Positions 20,978-42,238 of a stretch of DNA of 42,238 nucleotides are shown here, one piece after another (the first letter of the stretch is position 1; every line of letters begins with the position of its first letter). The stretch lies in the NCBI GenBank assembly GCA_017694515.1, contig JADIMV010000140.1, positions 1 to 42,238 on the forward strand, in the 5' to 3' direction. A program made the position numbers and the translations under genes. Source of the stretch: Candidatus Aphodosoma intestinipullorum. GTDB lineage: Bacteria > Bacteroidota > Bacteroidia > Bacteroidales > Paludibacteraceae. Below the pieces are notes generated by a model. That model was given only the letters and a program-made list of their open reading frames with translations, searched no databases and was not told the DNA's origin.

Positions 20978-21090
20978 GGTTGTAATGCTATAAACAGAAT
21001 GCAAATTTATGGAAAATCAGCGATATGTGATGCGTATGACAATATAAATAATAGGGTTGGCCGCCAGACGGGCTGATTACGTGAATTAAG

Positions 21091-21215
21091 GTTAAAAACA
21101 CGTACTCTCCAACTGCCTTGCAAATACCTTCTCCTTACCCTCCGGCTATGGAGGAGATGGGGAGCGGCTTCGGGAGAGCTTCGGGACGGTTACGGCGAGA
21201 GTACGTGTTTTTAAC
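21091..21215 (-). repeat. Inverted-terminus element (family A, copy 1), 125 bp
   Basis: GTTAAAAACACGTACTCTC (21091-21109) and its exact reverse complement GAGAGTACGTGTTTTTAAC (21197-21215). The orientation assignment comes from CCAACTG beside the left arm versus CAGTTGG beside the right arm in copy 2. Confidence 0.9.
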
Positions 21216-21948
21216 TTTTATTTGCTGCCTGTATTCGGGCTGTACGGGGCTACGTGTCCATGGCGTGGAGAGGGGCGGGATTAACAGAATGTGTATCTGA
21301 CGGGGTGTTTATGTCCGTTTTCTGTCTCCACGTCATTTGCCTTCCGGCAGACACCCTGTCGACGGGCTGCTGCACGCCGGAAGTCCCTCGGTTTACCCCT
21401 GTCAGTCCCCTAAATTCAGGTGATTTTCCATTTAGATATTTTTAGCTTATTTTCTTTCGTGCGATGACTCACGGTTATAGATGTTTTTGTAAATTTGCAT
21501 ATTGCAGTCAGAGTACGGTGTAAGGGCTTTGTAGCTTAGAGATTTCTTTTGGGCAATGAGGTAAATACACCGTTACAATGGTATGCTGAAACCGTTAAAT
21601 TAAGAAATATGCATTGAGGCGGCAGTTATTTGTGCAACGGGATGTTTGCATATTTAAGCTGTTGATGCAGTGTGTGTTGTGATGCCGATGCCGCATATTC
21701 GGGATGGTTCTGTGACTTAAAATGTTAAGTTAAAAAGATACTGGGTCAAATTCCCGATGTGCGTTTAATCCGTCAGTTAACGTTTTGCTTTTCTGCAAGA
21801 TAGTGGCGGATGTGTATGCGGATTGACGGGTCGGCTTTATGTTAAAACATTTCGGCGCTGTATTGCGGCGTTTCCTGTTGCCCGCAGTGCATGCTTTGAG
21901 GCCGGAATTTTAGCGGTATGATGTTTTGATATGGTGAGAAAATACGAT

Positions 21949-24900
21949 ATGATAAGAAAAAAACTGTTGCTTTTGCTTTTTGTTGTGGCGGGGTGTTGTG
22001 CGCAGGTGTCCGCTCAGACGGATGGCTATGCGTGTGATTTCGAGGATGCCGGGGAGCTTGACAACTGGACTTGGAACTCCGGAAGGCCGGGCCTTACGGA
22101 GAATGTGTGGGTTGTCGGCGACGCGGTGAACAACGGCGGCGAGAAATCCCTCTACATCTCTGCCGACGGAGGGAAAAGCGCGGGCTATGTGAAGAGCGCA
22201 AATACGGTCATCTCATACAGGATTTTAGAGCTGAAGGCCGGCGAGTACGAGCTTTCGTTCGACTGGCAGGCCGGTGGCTATCAGAACTTCGGCAAGAACG
22301 ATGCGATGTATGTCTGCTGGATTCCTGAAGGCTCTGCGGATGTCGACAGTAAGGCTACGGAGGCTCTTCCGAACTGGATAGAGCAACAGGCATTGGAATT
22401 CAACGTATTGAAGGCAGGCAAGAACACGACCTCCAAGCCTCTTTATTCATCCACGTGGCAGTCGTCATATACGACCATAACGACTGACGGCTCGCGCTAT
22501 ATGCTTGTCTTTGCGTGGAACAACTCGGCAGTGGGTGGGGTGAATCCCGGTGCCTGTGTCGACAATATAAATATAATCCCATCGAGTTCGTGCCAAAGGC
22601 CGTCGAATGTGACGATAGTGCCGGACGGCACGGATGTGGTGATAAGCTGGGACGGGCTGGCCGACTCTTACGATGTGCGCTGCAAATCGTCCAACGATGC
22701 TGAATGGCAGGAGTTCAATGTCACAGCCAAGACCCTGAGGGTCTCCGGCATGAACGAAGGTCTTATAGACGTATATATACGCTCCAACTGCGGCGATTTG
22801 CATAGCGGATGGCAATATTCGAACAAGTTCGTCTTCTTCCCCGGCACGCGCTGCATAGACTATTTGCAGATAGGTGCGGACAACTGTTCCTATGGTTCTC
22901 TGAAGGACGGCAAATGGAATCACGGCATTACCGACAACGGATATGCCGACTCCACAAGCCGCCACACCATACACTATTCGCGCATGGAGACCGACCCGCG
23001 CACCAACAACGGACTTAAGACTGTGCCGGACGACGAAGTGGCTTCAGTGCGTCTCGGCAACTGGTGTACAGGCAGCCAGATGGACCGGATAGAATACAAG
23101 TTTACGGTAGATGCGAAAGAGAACGCCATCCTGCTGCTGAAATATGCCTGCGTGCTGCAAGACCCGGATCATGACGATGCGAACCAGCCGCGTTTCACTC
23201 TCGATGTGCTCGGTGAGGATGGGAAGTCAGTCTCGATGGACGGCCAGCACTGCGCCTCTGTGGACTTCATAGCCGGTGTCACTACGAGTGACGACCCGAA
23301 TGACAAATGGAATCTGATAACGAAACCTCTCGACGGCGGTGAGACAGATAAGATATATTGGAAGGACTGGACTACCGTCGGCATCAACCTCGACAGGTTC
23401 GACGGCGAGGAACTGACCGTACAGGTGACCTCCTATGACTGCGCCGAGGGTGCGCATTACGGCTACGCCTATTTCGCCATAAGCTGCGACGGCGGACAGA
23501 TTACTACATTGGGCTGCAGCAGTGACCCTTATGTCACTTATGTGGCTCCCGAAGGCTTCGATTATAAATGGTACAGGAAGGACGATACGGAAAAGGCTGA
23601 AATCCTGAGCGACAGCATCAGCCTGACCCGCCCGGCCGATGACATGACTGTCTATGTCTGCGATGTCATACAGAAGACAAACCCCGACTGTTATTTCACT
23701 CTGGAAGCCATCAACGAGCCGCGTTTCCCGCTTATCGATGCCAAGCTGGCTCACAGGATGGAGAACTGTCAGAACATAGTGAAGTGCGAGTCGAACGATA
23801 CGCGTATAGTCATTGTGAAGGACAACGGCAGCGATACGGTCACTACGGAAGAGGTGTGTGACAGCGTGGTGTGGGTATTCGGCGACCCTGACAACGGCGG
23901 CTACCGCACTACCGAATGGGCACCGGAATACGTATTCCCCGATAATGTTTCGGGACGGGTGCCTGTTACCCTGACCGCATATCTTGCCGCTTGTGAGGAG
24001 GTGGAGACGTTCATGTTTGATTTGCCTGCTCTCGACATACACCGCGATACGGTGCATGAGGTGATGTGTGACGACGTGCCGTTCGTCTGGCGCGGTGAGG
24101 AGTACAGCACGCCCGGACTCTTCAGCGACACTTTGCAGTCCACTGTCACCATGTGCGACTCCATCAAGTTCCTTGACCTTGTGGCAAGCGATTCCGATAC
24201 TGTCAGATTTGACACGACGATATGCTCCGGCGACCTGCCGTATGTCCTTAACGGGAAGGAGTTCTGGTCTTCAGGACTTTGTTCGGACACACTCTCTACC
24301 TATATGGGGTGCGACTCTGTCGTGCTTGTAAATCTGACCGTCAATGAGTCGCTTGTCATCGATATGACTAACGAGTTCAATGTCTGTGCCGATGCAGGAG
24401 AGCTTGACATACCTATCGACATTCGTTCGGGCATGATTTCGGCCTATGACCTGACCTTCGAGAACAGCGATGCCGCGTCGATGGAGACGGCGGACGAGCC
24501 TGTCGAAAACTCTCAGGTCGTGATTGCCATCCCCGATGATCTGAAGCCTAACCGCTATAAGGGACGGATAGTGTTCCAGAACCTCGAGTGCGGGAATGAC
24601 ACTGCCGATATAATAATAAATGTAAGCTATCCAGACAGCCTGCTTATGCAGAGGTGGAATGATGTCATCGGCATACGCAACTCAAGTTACAACGGCGGCT
24701 ATACGTTCGAGTCATACCAGTGGTATAAGGACGGTGAGCCGATTGACGGACAGACCGGCGCGAACCTCTATCTGCCTGATGGCCTTGATTTCGGCGCACA
24801 GTACAATGCCAAAGTCAGGCGTGCGGATGATCAGGTCGAGGCGTTTATTTGCCCGATAGTTCCGGAGGAGTTCCCCGAAAGCGGTATAGAAGTTGTGCCT

Positions 24901-25119
24901 ACCGTCTCATTTACGGGCGGTACTGTGCAGATAAGTTCCAAAGGTGCTGCCGCCGGTACGGCTCGCCTGTGGACCATGACGGGCATGCTGGTGGAAAGCA
25001 TCCCGCTGGCGGACAGTGTGACGGATTTCTCCGCCCCCGATGTGCCCGGTACTTATATTCTGGAGATAAGGATGGACGACGGCTATACCCGGACGGAGAA
25101 ACTGATTGTACGGGAATAA
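21949..25119 (+). CDS. Large secreted surface protein with a probable type IX secretion C-terminal sorting domain
   Basis: Signal peptide 'MIRKKLLLLLFVVAGCCAQVSAQ', fibronectin-like 'RPSNVTIVPDGTDVVISWDGLADSYDVR', two 'TICSGDLPYVLNGKEFW...GCDSVVLVNLTV' modules, and C-terminal 'ARLWTMTGMLVESI...GTYILEIRMDDGYTRTEKLIVRE'. ORF opens at 21931. Confidence 0.86.
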   Translation: MIRKKLLLLLFVVAGCCAQVSAQTDGYACDFEDAGELDNWTWNSGRPGLTENVWVVGDAVNNGGEKSLYISADGGKSAGYVKSANTVISYRILELKAGEYELSFDWQAGGYQNFGKNDAMYVCWIPEGSADVDSKATEALPNWIEQQALEFNVLKAGKNTTSKPLYSSTWQSSYTTITTDGSRYMLVFAWNNSAVGGVNPGACVDNINIIPSSSCQRPSNVTIVPDGTDVVISWDGLADSYDVRCKSSNDAEWQEFNVTAKTLRVSGMNEGLIDVYIRSNCGDLHSGWQYSNKFVFFPGTRCIDYLQIGADNCSYGSLKDGKWNHGITDNGYADSTSRHTIHYSRMETDPRTNNGLKTVPDDEVASVRLGNWCTGSQMDRIEYKFTVDAKENAILLLKYACVLQDPDHDDANQPRFTLDVLGEDGKSVSMDGQHCASVDFIAGVTTSDDPNDKWNLITKPLDGGETDKIYWKDWTTVGINLDRFDGEELTVQVTSYDCAEGAHYGYAYFAISCDGGQITTLGCSSDPYVTYVAPEGFDYKWYRKDDTEKAEILSDSISLTRPADDMTVYVCDVIQKTNPDCYFTLEAINEPRFPLIDAKLAHRMENCQNIVKCESNDTRIVIVKDNGSDTVTTEEVCDSVVWVFGDPDNGGYRTTEWAPEYVFPDNVSGRVPVTLTAYLAACEEVETFMFDLPALDIHRDTVHEVMCDDVPFVWRGEEYSTPGLFSDTLQSTVTMCDSIKFLDLVASDSDTVRFDTTICSGDLPYVLNGKEFWSSGLCSDTLSTYMGCDSVVLVNLTVNESLVIDMTNEFNVCADAGELDIPIDIRSGMISAYDLTFENSDAASMETADEPVENSQVVIAIPDDLKPNRYKGRIVFQNLECGNDTADIIINVSYPDSLLMQRWNDVIGIRNSSYNGGYTFESYQWYKDGEPIDGQTGANLYLPDGLDFGAQYNAKVRRADDQVEAFICPIVPEEFPESGIEVVPTVSFTGGTVQISSKGAAAGTARLWTMTGMLVESIPLADSVTDFSAPDVPGTYILEIRMDDGYTRTEKLIVRE

Positions 25120-25170
25120 GGCGTTTGCCCGAAGTGTTTAATGTTTATTATCAGGAGAATAATATATCCG

Positions 25171-28100
25171 ATGCAGAGATTTAAGATTTATATAGCAGGA
25201 CTTTTTACATTACTGTGCGCGGTTCAGCTCTCCGCGCAGAGCGGCAATGCGATAACTGTGCCATATACCATAGATTTTGAGAACCCGACTGAAAACCAGA
25301 ACTGGGTGACCGATGATGCTGTCGGTACTGACCGGTGTACAGATAAATGGTATATCGGCAGTGCGCCCGGTGCCGCCCTCGATGGGGCGAACTCTCTCTA
25401 CATATCGTGTGACGGGGGTAAGACCGCCGAATATTGCACCGAGCGTAACATCGTGGTGGCGTACCGCCTTGTTGAACTGCCGGCAGGAAATTACAACCTG
25501 TCTTTCGACTGGAAGAACCTTGCCCCGGAGTCGTCTCCGCAAAGCGGCCTGTACTGCGTCATTTATGATTTATCCTCGTATGATGGAGAACTGCCGGAGT
25601 CTTTCCCCGGAAGCGGTGATGTCAATGATGCAATGTATCTGGTAGACCAAAAGCAGTGTACGATGGCAGACGGTACTACGATGACATGCATGAAAGGCTC
25701 GCAGGAATGGCTCAATGCAATTACTAATTTTACCGTACAGGGGAACAATTCCACTATGGTCATAGCGTTCGTTTGGGTCAATGATGAGCGTAATGAGCAG
25801 GCATTCCCTATCGCCGCTTGTGTGGACAATATACAGATATCCAGCGCGAATTGCTTCGTTCCTACGGGTCTCATGGTGGACGGCGGCTGCGACTCCATCG
25901 GTCTTTCGTGGACCGGATCTTCCATGTCCTACGAGCTTCAGTACCGCCCCGCAGATGCAGAGCAGTGGCGCAGCATAAAGGATATTGTAGAGACCGAGTA
26001 TAAGCTCCCTCCGATGGATGAGGGACTGTATGATTTCCGCGTACGTGCGGTCTGTTCAGAGGATATGGTGAGCGCATGGGTCTCGCTTTATTCCGAACTT
26101 GTTTTCTGCCCCGAAAATCACTGTATAGACTATATAGATTTCTACTCTCCGAACGTACATTTCTACGAAGCGGCGATTGCAGACAATGCCATAGGCTCTT
26201 ATTCTGAGTTGGCCGGTCCGATAGATTACGGTACAAATGAACAGGCAAGCCGTCATACGGTCTATTGGAAGCGCAATGAATATGACCCCCGCACTCAGTA
26301 TAAGCTGAAAACCATACCTGACGGAGAGTATGCCTCTGTCCGTATAGGTAACTGGGAAGCCTACGAGGGTCATGCTTACGGTGACCGTATAGAATACGAG
26401 TACACTGTCGATCCGGCCAAGCCTATCCTGATTCTGAAATATGCTATCGTATTGCAGAATCCTAATGATCCTACTCACCAACAGAAAGACCAGCCGTATT
26501 TTGAGTTGGCGGTAGTTGACAATAGTGGCAACGAGATAAACCCGGATTGCGGCAAGGTGGAGTTCTATGCGGACAAGAATGCCGAAGGGTGGAACTCATA
26601 TTGGCCAGATCCAAATGTTCAGACTGAGGTGATCGTTTGGAAAGACTGGACTACTATGGGATTGGATCTCAGCGGATATGCCGGCAATATAAGGATTCGT
26701 CTCACTGCGAGGGATTGCCTGCTGGGTGCGCACTACGGCTATGCCTATTTCACTCTCGGTTGTGCCGAGAAGGAACTGAAGAACGTCTCCTGCGGCGCAT
26801 CGGACAGCGTGAAGCTCGAAGCGCCGATGGGATTTGACTATGCATGGTTTCTCAATGCGCGTGGTGAGGACGGTTCTGACAATATAGACTGGAACGACAC
26901 CGTCAGCCATGAGCAGATACTCGGCGTAGAGCCCTCTGACGTGAACGAATATGTCTGCGTTGTTTCGCAGACGGAGAAGCCCGGGTGTTCTTTCCAGATA
27001 CGTTCGACAGTCTCGCCGCGCGAACCGTATGCCGGAATCGGATGGCGGTTTGTGCCGAAGGAGTGTACCAACATTGTCCAGCTGATAAACAACAGCCAGG
27101 TCATATCCTTCGACAGCAATGGCGATACAATCTATACCGGAGAGCCGACAGAGACAGCATATTGGGATTTCTTCGACGGCAATCCTGTCTATGAGGAGAA
27201 TCCTACATACGTAATGCCGGCAGAAGGCGGACAGCTGAAGGTCTCGCTTAAGGCGGGCATAGCGGGCGATGCGTGCGTGGATGATACGATTGTGATTATT
27301 GACGTGCCGTCCATCCTCACTCCCGATTCCGTAATAGACACCACTATATGTGGCGGGTACAGCGTGCAATTCGCCGGGCAATCTTATGGAGAGACTGGCA
27401 TATACTATGACTCCTGTGTGAATAGAGCCGGATGCGACAGTGTCGTCATATTGAATCTGAAAGTGCGTGACCGTATTCCTGATGTCGATGTGGTGGACAC
27501 CATCTGTTTCGGAGAGACATATTATGTGGGCTGGCGTGAGTATACATCCGGCGGAGTGTTTGATGATATAATAATTACCAGTGCGAACGGATGCGACAGT
27601 ATTGTCAATCTCCGGCTGACAGTTCTGGAGGAGGTGACTTTCTCGTATGAGGTGAAAGATGAGGTTGGTTTGCCCAACTCCGGTGAGATAATAATAAAGG
27701 ATGCACCTGACGGCTATACGTACAGTGTGAACGGTGAGATGGGAGGTTCGTTGACCGGACTCGAAGGCGGTATATATAAGGTGGTAGTCTTCGCAGGTGA
27801 GGGCACTCACATCTGTCAGAGCGATACGGCTGTGATAGAGGTGAAGAAAGTGTGCTCCACTGTCGAGGTAGACACGGACTCCTCGTTCCATGTATGCGCA
27901 GATGTCGAGAAACTTTCCATCCCGTTTGATATTGTCGAGGGCGCACTGTCGCGGATTGACGTGAAGTATGGCGACAAGGCCAAGAGCGCGGGTTTTGAGG
28001 ATATATCGTTAGACCCGGGTGCTAATGCTGTCGACCTCTTCCTCCCTGAGGCGGTCAGGCCGGATACATACGATGCTTCCCTTGATTTCATCGATCCTAT

Positions 28101-28629
28101 ATGCGATACGATTTCTTATCCTGTGACGTTCGATGTCTACTATGCCCCTGGGATAGTCCGGCAGAAATGGAACAATGTGCTCGCCGTGCAGAACAGCGGC
28201 TACAACGGAGGGTTTGACTTCTCCGCATTCCAGTGGTATAAGAACGGTGAACCCATATCGGGCGAGGTCTCTTCCGTACTCTATCTTGGAGAAGGGGTGT
28301 CGTTCGATATAAACGATGTCTATCATGTACTGCTGACGCGTGCGGATGATGAGGTGTCGATGCCGTCATGCCCTGTCACACTTGTGCAGAAAGAAGACAT
28401 AAGCGCATATCCGCAGCAGACGGTTGTGCCGGCCGGTGCGCCGCTGAAAATAGCGAATGTCCAGTCTGACGTGTCTGTCGCGCTGTACAGTGTGTCGGGT
28501 ATGCTCTGTTATACCGGCACTGTGGATGCTTACTCAGACCAGATTGTGATGCCGGAAACTGTTGGCGTATATGTCATGGTCTTGAAAAACGGAGAAACAG
28601 AAAAATATTATAAAATATTGGTAAGATAA
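25171..28629 (+). CDS. Large secreted surface protein, paralogue of the preceding gene, with a probable T9SS sorting domain
   Basis: Same layout as 21949..25119: 'CIDYI..', 'YEYTVDPAKPILILKYAIVLQNP', 'GAHYGYAYFTLGC', 'TICGGYSVQFAGQSYGETGIYYDSCVNRAGCDSVVILNLKV', C-terminal 'ALYSVSGMLCYTGTVDAYSDQIVMPETVGVYVMVLKNGETEKYYKILVR'. ORF opens at 25141. Confidence 0.87.
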   Translation: MQRFKIYIAGLFTLLCAVQLSAQSGNAITVPYTIDFENPTENQNWVTDDAVGTDRCTDKWYIGSAPGAALDGANSLYISCDGGKTAEYCTERNIVVAYRLVELPAGNYNLSFDWKNLAPESSPQSGLYCVIYDLSSYDGELPESFPGSGDVNDAMYLVDQKQCTMADGTTMTCMKGSQEWLNAITNFTVQGNNSTMVIAFVWVNDERNEQAFPIAACVDNIQISSANCFVPTGLMVDGGCDSIGLSWTGSSMSYELQYRPADAEQWRSIKDIVETEYKLPPMDEGLYDFRVRAVCSEDMVSAWVSLYSELVFCPENHCIDYIDFYSPNVHFYEAAIADNAIGSYSELAGPIDYGTNEQASRHTVYWKRNEYDPRTQYKLKTIPDGEYASVRIGNWEAYEGHAYGDRIEYEYTVDPAKPILILKYAIVLQNPNDPTHQQKDQPYFELAVVDNSGNEINPDCGKVEFYADKNAEGWNSYWPDPNVQTEVIVWKDWTTMGLDLSGYAGNIRIRLTARDCLLGAHYGYAYFTLGCAEKELKNVSCGASDSVKLEAPMGFDYAWFLNARGEDGSDNIDWNDTVSHEQILGVEPSDVNEYVCVVSQTEKPGCSFQIRSTVSPREPYAGIGWRFVPKECTNIVQLINNSQVISFDSNGDTIYTGEPTETAYWDFFDGNPVYEENPTYVMPAEGGQLKVSLKAGIAGDACVDDTIVIIDVPSILTPDSVIDTTICGGYSVQFAGQSYGETGIYYDSCVNRAGCDSVVILNLKVRDRIPDVDVVDTICFGETYYVGWREYTSGGVFDDIIITSANGCDSIVNLRLTVLEEVTFSYEVKDEVGLPNSGEIIIKDAPDGYTYSVNGEMGGSLTGLEGGIYKVVVFAGEGTHICQSDTAVIEVKKVCSTVEVDTDSSFHVCADVEKLSIPFDIVEGALSRIDVKYGDKAKSAGFEDISLDPGANAVDLFLPEAVRPDTYDASLDFIDPICDTISYPVTFDVYYAPGIVRQKWNNVLAVQNSGYNGGFDFSAFQWYKNGEPISGEVSSVLYLGEGVSFDINDVYHVLLTRADDEVSMPSCPVTLVQKEDISAYPQQTVVPAGAPLKIANVQSDVSVALYSVSGMLCYTGTVDAYSDQIVMPETVGVYVMVLKNGETEKYYKILVR

Positions 28630-32755: not shown

Positions 32756-33868
32756 TCAGCCGTTTACAGCCTCCCGTATGGCCTGCTCCACCTGTTCATG
32801 GTCGAAACGGCCTATGATGTCGCCATCGCGGTTCATGATGAACATCGTGGGTATCTCCGTGACGTTATATGTGAGCAGGCACTGGCTTCGGGGTGCATCC
32901 GCATCGCGCACGCATATCCATGGCGTGGTGCGCGACTGCTCCATCCACAGCAGCTTGTTCTCGTCGATTGACACTTGGTATATCTCAAGTCCCGCATCGT
33001 GCCAGCGGTCGTACATCTCGCGTAGGAACAGCGTGTGGGCCGATGCGCCCTCCATGCTGTACGCTGAGAAGTCTATCAGCACTACTTTGCCTTTGAGCGA
33101 CGAGAGAGCCACAGTCTCGCCCGTCCTGTCGGGCAGCGCGATGTCTATCATGCCTTGCAGCGGGGCAGTGATGGTGATTTCCCCGGCATCGGCCATCCTT
33201 TGCGCGCGCAGTGACCGCAGCGTTATCTCTTTCAGTTCCTTAGAGCGATAATAATCAGGACGGTAGAGGTCAAATGCCGTTGCAACGGCTGCCCACAGCT
33301 GCAACTGCTCACGGTTGTTCGGCGAGAAGAAGTACATCCCGTTAAGTGTCTGGTGTACTGCATAGTATGCCGCCATTGACTTCGTGTCTTCCAGAATTAT
33401 CTCTGTCGCCATTTGCCTGTGACCGGCCAGCAGTGTGTTGAAGTTGGCCTCATCGCCATCCTTCGCCTCTGTCTGTATCCGCATGGCCGATGCCCGTAGT
33501 TCGCGTATCTTTTCCGTAGCCGCGCTGCCCTCAACGCTGAAGCCTGCGGTCATGTTCTCTTTCGTGGCGTCAATCTCCACTGTCTCTGTCGAGTCTATCG
33601 CGACTATGATGTTGTCGTTGCCGAGCCTCAGGCGGTAGAGGTCGGGATAGTCAGGCGCATCAGCCTTGAACTTGAATTTGCCACCCGCACCTAACCGCAC
33701 GGAGTCCAGTGTCTCCGCTGCGGTGATGGTCATGCGGTCGAGATAAAGTGTCTCGCCCTTTGCGCCGCTTATGTGGCCGCGTATCTTGAACGTCTCGCCC
33801 CCGCAGGCTGCAAGCAGGACGGCAGCCAATGAGAGTATTGCAAATCTGGCAATAGTGTTATTATTCAT
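32756..33868 (-). CDS. Thioredoxin-like (TlpA/AhpC-TSA) lipoprotein with an N-terminal DUF4369-like domain
   Basis: Lipobox 'AAVLLAAC', 'FKIRGHISGAKGETLYLDRM', 'LPDRTGETVALSSLKGKVVLIDFSAYSMEGA', 'YQVSIDENKLLWMEQSRTTPWICVRD'. The usual CxxC is replaced by 'YSMEG'. Confidence 0.88.
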   Translation of the reverse strand: MNNNTIARFAILSLAAVLLAACGGETFKIRGHISGAKGETLYLDRMTITAAETLDSVRLGAGGKFKFKADAPDYPDLYRLRLGNDNIIVAIDSTETVEIDATKENMTAGFSVEGSAATEKIRELRASAMRIQTEAKDGDEANFNTLLAGHRQMATEIILEDTKSMAAYYAVHQTLNGMYFFSPNNREQLQLWAAVATAFDLYRPDYYRSKELKEITLRSLRAQRMADAGEITITAPLQGMIDIALPDRTGETVALSSLKGKVVLIDFSAYSMEGASAHTLFLREMYDRWHDAGLEIYQVSIDENKLLWMEQSRTTPWICVRDADAPRSQCLLTYNVTEIPTMFIMNRDGDIIGRFDHEQVEQAIREAVNG

Positions 33869-34441: not shown

Positions 34442-34657
34442 ACGGTGTTGTTTTTGGCAGGTCAGTCTGATGCTGTCCGCCGTGTTGCGACTGTGCAAAA
34501 TTACGGAAAAATGCCCGAACGGGAAAGGGGAATATGGCGTTCCGGCCAGATAGGTCTGCCCATGCAGGAATGTGGCGTTGCGGTGCGAGCGTTTTGACCT
34601 CAGTCGGTGCTGTATATGCGTGATACGTCGACTCCATTTCTGATATGGCTAATATAA

Positions 34658-34749
34658 GTTAAAAACACGTACTCTCGCCTTAGCTTCAAGCTAACTTCAA
34701 GCTACCCCGCACCTACCTGCCAGTTGGCTCGAGAGTACGTGTTTTTAAC
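34658..34749 (+). repeat. Inverted-terminus element (family A, copy 2), 92 bp
   Basis: GTTAAAAACACGTACTCTC (34658-34676) and GAGAGTACGTGTTTTTAAC (34731-34749), a perfect 19-bp inverted repeat (20 bp with flanking G/C). The interior contains AGCTTCAAGCTAACTTCAAGCTA. Confidence 0.92.
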
Positions 34750-34848
34750 CTTTATTTTAACTTGAGGTTGCTTATGCAGAGCCTGCGCGTCGTCTGCCGT
34801 TTTTATACCGAAGCGGGGTGATGCTACAAAAAATAGCCGTTAGCGGTA

Positions 34849-42105: not shown

Positions 42106-42208
42106 CTCATTTTATCCATGGAGAATCGCAGGCTTATACTGGCAGCGCGTTATCGTGGTGCAGCTCGTCGCATTCCCCATACCGTAATATCCCAATAGTA
42201 AAATAAAG

Positions 42209-42238
42209 GTTAAAAACACGTACTCTCGCCGAATCCTC
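42209..42238 (+). repeat. Inverted-terminus element (family A, copy 3), cut by the window end
   Basis: GTTAAAAACACGTACTCTCGCC at 42209-42230 is identical to the left arm of copy 2. The right arm would lie outside the window. Confidence 0.8.

What the first reader, a model, noticed from the sequence alone, without database searches (positions are those of the whole stretch)
34658..34749. Oriented short element with perfect 19-bp inverted termini and a divergent AGCTT-rich interior
GTTAAAAACACGTACTCTC at one end is mirrored exactly by GAGAGTACGTGTTTTTAAC at the other. A second full copy (21091-21215) and a third left arm (42209) have the same termini, but interiors differ in length (54 vs 87 nt between the 19-nt arms) and largely in sequence. 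The interiors still share polarity: CGCC(G/T)TA after one arm and CAGTTGG before the other, so copy 1 is the reverse orientation of copy 2. Perfectly kept ends around a drifting interior suggest selection or recent spread of the termini. Candidates are a MITE-like element moved in trans, a recombination or protein-binding site, or a hairpin RNA. Both complete copies lie between divergently transcribed genes, so a simple 3' terminator role fits poorly.
Basis: seen in the sequence. Interest (0 to 1): 0.72.

Follow-up and report, generated by a model that had tools for sequence, protein, structure and literature searches.

The report
Capped 11-bp-phased intergenic DNA element
The finding is one of several hundred short DNA marks, found in only two closely related bacterial species, that sit between genes and combine an unchanging 19-letter cap with a run of loosely similar 11-letter units kept in exact register, which looks like the landing strip of an unknown DNA-binding protein rather than a recent jumping element.

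Summary
The arms are real and exact, and not a three-copy oddity. The genome holds 135 exact copies (206 with up to 3 mismatches) and a sister species 125 (284). The seven other congeners and the remaining ~350 family genomes searched have no exact copy. The inverted pair is the minority form. The basic unit is a single polar element: AT-rich leader, 19-bp cap, about four degenerate 11-bp units. Successive caps lie at integer multiples of 11 bp (44 to 176; p~1e-18); close inverted pairs always point inward. None of 173 sampled arms lies in a coding sequence. Arms sit outside predicted transcripts, mostly in divergent regions. Copies share no sequence beyond cap and array, so recent MITE spread is disfavoured; single copies have no RNA fold. 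Arm direction follows the GC skew of neighbouring genes (113 of 128 regions). Best reading: a nucleation site (cap) plus 11-bp lattice for a cooperative DNA-binding protein at transcription-unit boundaries; protein and function unknown. Rivals: an old domesticated mobile repeat, a one-regulator operator, an uptake-type motif. Real, lineage-specific and, as far as I could find, undescribed.

The parts
34642..34657 (+). copy 2: left AT-rich leader of the cap (GATATGGCTAATATAA)
   Evidence: semi-conserved leader in 50 aligned copies; A at -7 and -6 in 88-100% of copies
34658..34676 (+). copy 2: left cap, 19 bp invariant
   Evidence: exact match
34677..34730 (.). copy 2: two inward-pointing arrays of 11-bp units meeting in the middle; core-to-core distance 66 bp = 6 x 11
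34731..34749 (-). copy 2: right cap, 19 bp invariant
   Evidence: exact match
34750..34765 (-). copy 2: right AT-rich leader; no target duplication with the left flank
21075..21090 (+). copy 1: left AT-rich leader
21091..21109 (+). copy 1: left cap
   Evidence: exact match
21110..21196 (.). copy 1: inward-pointing 11-bp arrays; core-to-core distance 99 bp = 9 x 11
21197..21215 (-). copy 1: right cap
   Evidence: exact match
21216..21231 (-). copy 1: right AT-rich leader
42193..42238 (+). copy 3: leader, cap (42209-42227) and first 11-bp unit (GCCGAATCCTC), cut by the contig end

Best explanation
A DNA-level recognition element. The invariant 19-20 bp cap (GTTAAAAACACGTACTCTCG, preceded by an AT-rich leader) is a high-affinity nucleation site. 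The following degenerate 11-bp units (consensus NNSNNASCCYC counted from the cap, with a TA, AA or CA step every 11 bp) form a lattice along which a cooperative, sequence-specific DNA-binding protein, one subunit per 11 bp or a regular wrap, extends. A second cap may end the lattice (inverted pairs) or restart it in register (direct pairs). The elements mark boundaries of transcription units, between divergent promoters or between a terminator and the next promoter, and most likely act as chromosome-architecture or insulator/regulatory sites. Shown: copy number, restriction to two species, anatomy, 11-bp register, intergenic and promoter-upstream position, polarity with local GC skew. Inferred: that a protein binds, that it is cooperative, and what it does there.
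For: 135 exact copies in the own genome and 125 in the sister species, 0 exact in the other genomes searched; a sequence profile finds 161 and 151 copies there and nothing below E=0.13 in seven congeners. Lag-11 autocorrelation 0.49-0.53 and lag-22 0.46-0.47 against about 0.28 background. A at cap positions 13, 24, 35, 46, 57 (0-based) in 73-99% of copies. 61 direct core-to-core distances are multiples of 11.0 (60 of 61 within 2 bp, R=0.83, p~7e-19; R=0.54 at 10.5); 16 of 19 inverted distances are exactly 0 mod 11; no outward-pointing pair within 400 bp. In inverted pairs the units of both halves stay on one lattice, which points to double-stranded DNA. 0 of 173 arms in CDS although CDS is 83% of the sequence; divergent regions carry 2-4 times the density of tandem or convergent ones; unbiased sample: 11 of 15 divergent regions of at least 400 bp. 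-7 boxes TAnnTTTG on the + strand lie almost only downstream, those on the - strand almost only upstream. No similarity between copies beyond cap and array, so the cap is kept site by site. No RNA fold in single copies. Orthologous intergenic regions: 4 occupied in both species, 4 in one, 34 in neither (Fisher p about 6e-4, computed by hand).
Against: No binding protein was identified, and nothing was tested in the laboratory. Cap-to-promoter distances are not fixed. A 38-bit cap in ~200 copies carries far more information than a regulator needs, which hints at a copying or homogenising process. Half of the occupied orthologous regions are empty in the sister, and one shared region has the opposite orientation. 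No functional class of neighbouring genes stood out (not tested systematically).
Confidence: 0.5

Rival explanations
1. A non-autonomous mobile repeat (MITE- or REP-like), now old: arms are transposon ends, arrays are sub-terminal transposase sites; copies spread in the ancestor of the two species and their ends were kept by trans-mobilisation.
For: High copy number, intergenic location, restriction to two species, inward-pointing inverted pairs, and presence/absence between orthologous regions with length differences of 88-420 bp. Phased sub-terminal sites are known at transposon ends (general knowledge).
Against: No two copies share sequence outside cap and array, whereas a REP-like family in congener G005 shows near-identical copies over >100 nt. 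Most copies are single-ended. No target duplication at inverted copies. No Y1_Tnp protein (REP transposase family) in the 85%-complete own genome. The length differences are no larger than those of regions without arms. The 11-bp register also links separate direct copies.
Confidence: 0.22
2. Operator or upstream activating region of one global regulator or alternative sigma factor (a large regulon).
For: Position upstream of promoters on both sides, strong enrichment in divergent regions, helical-scale periodicity.
Against: Distance to genes varies from about 90 to more than 800 bp. In tandem regions arms point with and against the gene about equally (28 against 36). A cap without variation in 135 copies is unlike ordinary operators. 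Window neighbours are unrelated (NadB-like FAD oxidoreductase, CYTH protein, cytidylyltransferase-like protein).
Confidence: 0.13
3. A motif maintained by molecular drive, such as a DNA uptake signal: an exact core with helically phased degenerate flank, kept perfect at each locus by biased uptake and recombination.
For: Exact core plus phased degenerate tail; each locus keeps the core while flanks diverge; occurrence in direct and inverted pairs; restriction to close relatives.
Against: Uptake sequences are also common inside genes (general knowledge); here 0 of 173. About 200 copies is few. Competence of this lineage was not tested.
Confidence: 0.07
4. RNA-level element: bidirectional terminator hairpin or Rho-dependent terminator (C-rich, evenly spaced pyrimidine patches).
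For: Inverted copies fold strongly and end in a T-run (z -8.6, -5.7). The + strand is C-rich and G-poor for about 150-200 nt on each side.
Against: Most copies are single and unfolded; elements lie upstream of promoters, not after genes, and are rare between convergent genes. In inverted copies the lattice continues through the G-rich half.
Confidence: 0.05

Closest known systems
BrickBuilt MITE of Porphyromonas gingivalis (PMC4596501)
   Same: Bacteroidales, intergenic, limited host range, tandem repeats inside an element with short inverted ends, no transposase inside, promoter-proximal.
   Different: 19 copies; 23-nt near-identical tandem repeats (consensus AGAYCATARTATCCTCTCRTRTG) with leader and tail; ends resemble known IS/MITE ends. 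Here about 200-280 copies, a 19-bp invariant cap, degenerate 11-bp units in strict register across separate copies, mostly one-ended.
BOX elements of Streptococcus pneumoniae (PMC3049150)
   Same: High-copy modular intergenic repeat with conserved end modules and a variable middle.
   Different: BOX modules form RNA stem-loops and have ends like ISSpn2. Here single copies have no fold and units are 11 bp.
REP/BIME and RAYT-linked repeats (GTAG and CGTC families, PMC3733652)
   Same: Hundreds of short extragenic elements, singles and inverted dimers.
TAACTGA direct repeats of Beggiatoaceae and some Bacteroidetes (PMC4679880)
   Same: Abundant intergenic short-period repeats with patchy distribution, proposed protein-binding sites.
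   Different: Exact heptamers next to start codons, proposed to act in translation; here >90 bp upstream, 11-bp degenerate units with an invariant cap.
ParR/parC-type iterated sites (from general knowledge; PMC9426499 is a ParMRC paper that mentions 11-bp repeats, not read)
   Same: Works-like analogy only: cooperative binding to direct repeats of about 11 bp.
   Different: Plasmid partition sites, one or two per replicon; here hundreds of chromosomal sites; no ParR-like protein was sought.
DNA uptake sequences (Neisseria, Pasteurellaceae; general knowledge)
   Same: Exact short core in hundreds of copies, direct and inverted pairs, degenerate phased flank in Pasteurellaceae.
   Different: Uptake sequences also occur in genes; here never in sampled genes.

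Membership tests
MITE | terminal inverted repeats | tested here: inconclusive
   present in the two window copies and a minority of others; most copies have one arm
MITE | target-site duplication | tested here: not met
   flanks of the listed inverted copies show inverted AT-rich leaders and no direct repeats, by inspection
MITE | copies similar along their length, traceable to a transposase | tested here: not met
   no similarity beyond cap and array in 202 copies; no source transposase found, but only one family was searched
MITE | clean occupied versus empty orthologous sites | tested here: inconclusive
   4 regions occupied only in G000, 88-420 bp longer, but flanks too diverged to align a junction and unoccupied regions differ in length just as much
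REP/RAYT repeats | short palindromic unit | tested here: not met
   single cap plus array has no fold
REP/RAYT repeats | RAYT (Y1_Tnp) transposase in the genome | tested here: not met
   0 matches to PF01797 in G000, which is 85% complete
Structured RNA / intrinsic terminator | conserved hairpin across copies | tested here: not met
   RNAalifold: 0 pairs in 50 copies; inverted copies do fold
Structured RNA / intrinsic terminator | position 3' of genes | tested here: not met
   rare in convergent regions, upstream of -7 boxes
Known Rfam RNA | match at gathering score | tested here: not met
   only 3 tRNAs in the window
DNA uptake sequence | preferential uptake of DNA that carries it | not testable with these tools
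   needs transformation assays
Protein-binding iteron/lattice site | regular spacing of repeated sites | tested here: met
   11.0-bp register within and between copies
Protein-binding iteron/lattice site | demonstrated binding protein | not testable with these tools
   no candidate identified

The most novel reading that the evidence does not exclude
A new class of chromosomal boundary element: hundreds of polar nucleation caps, each followed by an 11.0-bp lattice, on which an unknown lineage-specific protein builds regular nucleoprotein filaments or wraps outside transcription units, oriented by local strand asymmetry of the chromosome.
Probability: 0.3. Interest if true: 0.8.

Novelty: new variant of a known kind. 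Interest (0 to 1): 0.62.

Why it matters
If the reading holds, two sister species carry a genome-wide set of identical, polar, phased binding sites at transcription-unit boundaries that the other congeners searched lack. That would be a recent, clean case for how a chromosome acquires a new architectural or regulatory site family. The exact 11-bp register over up to 176 bp predicts the geometry of the bound protein and is directly testable by pull-down and footprinting. If instead it is a mobile repeat, it is an unusual one whose ends stay perfect while everything else, even the interior, turns over.

Tried and rejected
The catalogue scans of genome contigs and viral contigs gave no answer in four attempts, so named organisms and the full species range are missing. 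REP transposase: none in the own genome. Promoter made by the reversed cap (TAnnTTTG just outside it): only a minority of copies have it. Rho/C-rich RNA idea: dropped because the lattice continues through the G-rich half of inverted copies and the elements lie upstream of promoters. A counterpart motif in congener G005: not found in 0.4 Mb; its commonest k-mers are one 37-copy run (CRISPR-like by inspection) and a REP-like family. The idea that caps cause the local GC skew: weakened, because G005 has the same local skew domains without caps. Autonomous element between distant inward-pointing arms: only four candidate pairs at 0.4-6 kb, not pursued. Papers: none on this element found.

Full report
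Observation. The three sites described are exact: arms at 21091/21197, 34658/34731 and 42209, with no other site in the window at up to 3 mismatches and none expected. The window is the whole contig C113 of a 2.44-Mb, 162-contig, 85%-complete genome (G000).

Copy number and range. Exact arms: 135 in G000 and 125 in one congener, G001, with zero for the reversed control pattern; none in seven other congeners or 92 further genomes of family and order. With up to 3 mismatches the counts are 206 and 284, against 0-1 in the other congeners. The core AAACACGTACTCTCG occurs in 2 of 358 family genomes, and the arm at up to 1 mismatch in 1 of 394 genomes drawn across the order, a sample that did not include G001. 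A 68-position sequence profile built from 50 copies finds 161 and 151 matches in the two carriers and nothing below E=0.13 elsewhere in the genus. The family is therefore confined, in what is held, to two species (one NadB-like gene is 89% identical between them at nucleotide level; median ortholog amino-acid identity about 85%).

Anatomy. Most copies are single, oriented arms. Read from the arm's GTT end: an AT-rich leader, the cap GTTAAAAACACGTACTCTCG, then degenerate 11-bp units. The conserved A recurs at 0-based positions 13, 24, 35, 46 and 57 from the cap start in 73-99% of copies; autocorrelation is 0.49-0.53 at lag 11 and 0.46-0.47 at lag 22, against about 0.28. The cap contains the first unit (CACGTACTCTC). 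Unit sequences are drawn from a few flavours (CGAAG, GCCAG, CGGAC, CCTAT, GCTAC at positions 3-7) and are only slightly more alike within than between elements (5.9 against 4.95 of 11), so the array is a maintained degenerate consensus and not a fresh tandem duplication.

Register. Successive cores in the same direction lie 44, 55, 66, 77, 88, 99, 110, 121, 132, 154, 165 or 176 bp apart, within 2 bp in 60 of 61 cases. The best period is 11.0 (R=0.83, Rayleigh p~7e-19; R=0.54 at 10.5), and it holds for the 46 pairs more than 70 bp apart (R=0.78). The short 44- and 55-bp spacings may partly reflect array units that turned into cores, which is why the long spacings matter. Inverted pairs are inward-pointing in all 19 cases, 16 exactly at 0 mod 11; no outward-pointing pair was seen within 400 bp. 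The two window copies are 6 x 11 and 9 x 11 bp core to core. Units of both halves of an inverted pair stay on one lattice.

Place. In 1.3 Mb sampled from both genomes, 0 of 173 arms lie in predicted CDS, which make up 83% of the sequence; density is 1.4-1.6 per kb in divergent regions, 0.45-0.7 in tandem and 0.3-0.6 in convergent ones. These stretches were partly chosen because they carry arms. A set of 320 kb of G001 taken without regard to arms gives the same picture: 11 of 15 divergent regions of at least 400 bp, 10 of 24 tandem, 0 of 4 convergent. Gene calls are from a simple hexamer-scored ORF finder of my own. The Bacteroidetes -7 box TAnnTTTG lies almost only downstream of the arm on the + strand and almost only upstream on the - strand, so elements sit outside transcripts. 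In one tandem example (L135 and its ortholog in L077) both species show terminator, two elements, promoter.

Age and spread. All-against-all comparison of 202 copies with 250-350 nt of flank finds no pair alike beyond cap and array except three copies in one local 166-nt tandem triplication. In congener G005, by contrast, a REP-like family shows near-identical copies over >100 nt. Of 42 orthologous intergenic regions, 4 are occupied in both species, 4 in G000 only (88-420 bp longer, although unoccupied regions differ in length as much) and 34 in neither; one of the four shared has opposite orientation. At shared sites the cap is kept while flanks and most of the array are not. This argues for site-by-site maintenance with some gain and loss, not recent spread.

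RNA. RNAalifold predicts no pair for 50 single copies. Single copies fold no better than shuffles (z -0.1 to +1.5), while the two inverted window copies fold strongly (z -8.6 and -5.7), as they must. Rfam finds only tRNAs in the window.

Polarity and strand asymmetry. Around arms the arm strand is C-rich and G-poor from about -150 to +200 whichever way the genes point; the sign agrees with arm direction in 58 of 62 one-direction regions of G000 and all 55 of G001. The same holds for neighbouring genes: GC3 skew in arm direction is about -0.2 for genes pointing with the arms and +0.2 for genes pointing against them, within 6 kb in G001 (p~7e-76; G000 p~3e-17; arms close together share genes, so these p-values overstate independence); by region, 113 agree and 15 disagree. 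Skew changes sign every 5-40 kb along single contigs and most arms flip with it. Congener G005 shows the same local skew domains without arms, so the arms probably follow the asymmetry and do not cause it. I have no mechanism for these domains.

Interpretation. The combination of an invariant cap, a degenerate lattice of 11.0 bp continuing across separate copies and across orientation switches, location outside transcripts, and absence of RNA fold is best explained by a cooperative DNA-binding protein that nucleates at the cap and extends in 11-bp steps. That a protein binds is inferred; its identity and the function (insulation, chromosome architecture, regulation) are open. An old mobile repeat remains the main rival, because a 38-bit cap in ~200 copies is more than a binding site needs.

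Noticed in passing
G001:C10, C9, C5 (loci L068-L079, L115-L123); also G000 and congener G005 (L170-L189): Local GC-skew domains: GC3 skew flips sign every 5-40 kb, independent of gene direction (divergent neighbours correlate at about 0.8), conserved between G000 and G001 orthologs (r 0.59), largely lost against G005. Not explained by a single replication origin and terminus.
   Followed up: partly
L171-L188 (congener G005), e.g. L186:3153, L188:5891-6360: REP-like family around GGAGACGGAGCAGGCTCCGTCTTTACAGGGG with near-identical >100-nt copies, some next to what looks like a RAYT-type gene (by eye, not tested).
   Followed up: partly
congener G005, among L170-L189: A 37-copy repeat containing GTTGTGAATTGCTTTGAAATTTGTATCTTGAGCCCA, probably a CRISPR array.
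   Followed up: no
G001 arms, e.g. L043:1611, L038:1667, L072:15-103: In G001 a second set of caps carries GTTAAAAAG(A/T/C)CG or GTTAAAAACACCT variants, often the second member of a direct pair; nearly absent from G000.
   Followed up: partly
G000 cores at 44/55 bp spacing, e.g. L020:1507-1595, L130:2984-3093: Short caps without the GTTAA leader (YGAAACACGTACYCTCG) recur inside arrays, mostly in G000.
   Followed up: partly
G000:C93 near 32881-33213 (L066:3382-3714): Local tandem triplication of a 166-nt unit (about 15 x 11) carrying the element, copies about 85% identical.
   Followed up: no
window 21931-28629: Two long adjacent ORFs (1062 and about 1152 aa) without any Pfam match at E<=1e-5.
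   Followed up: no
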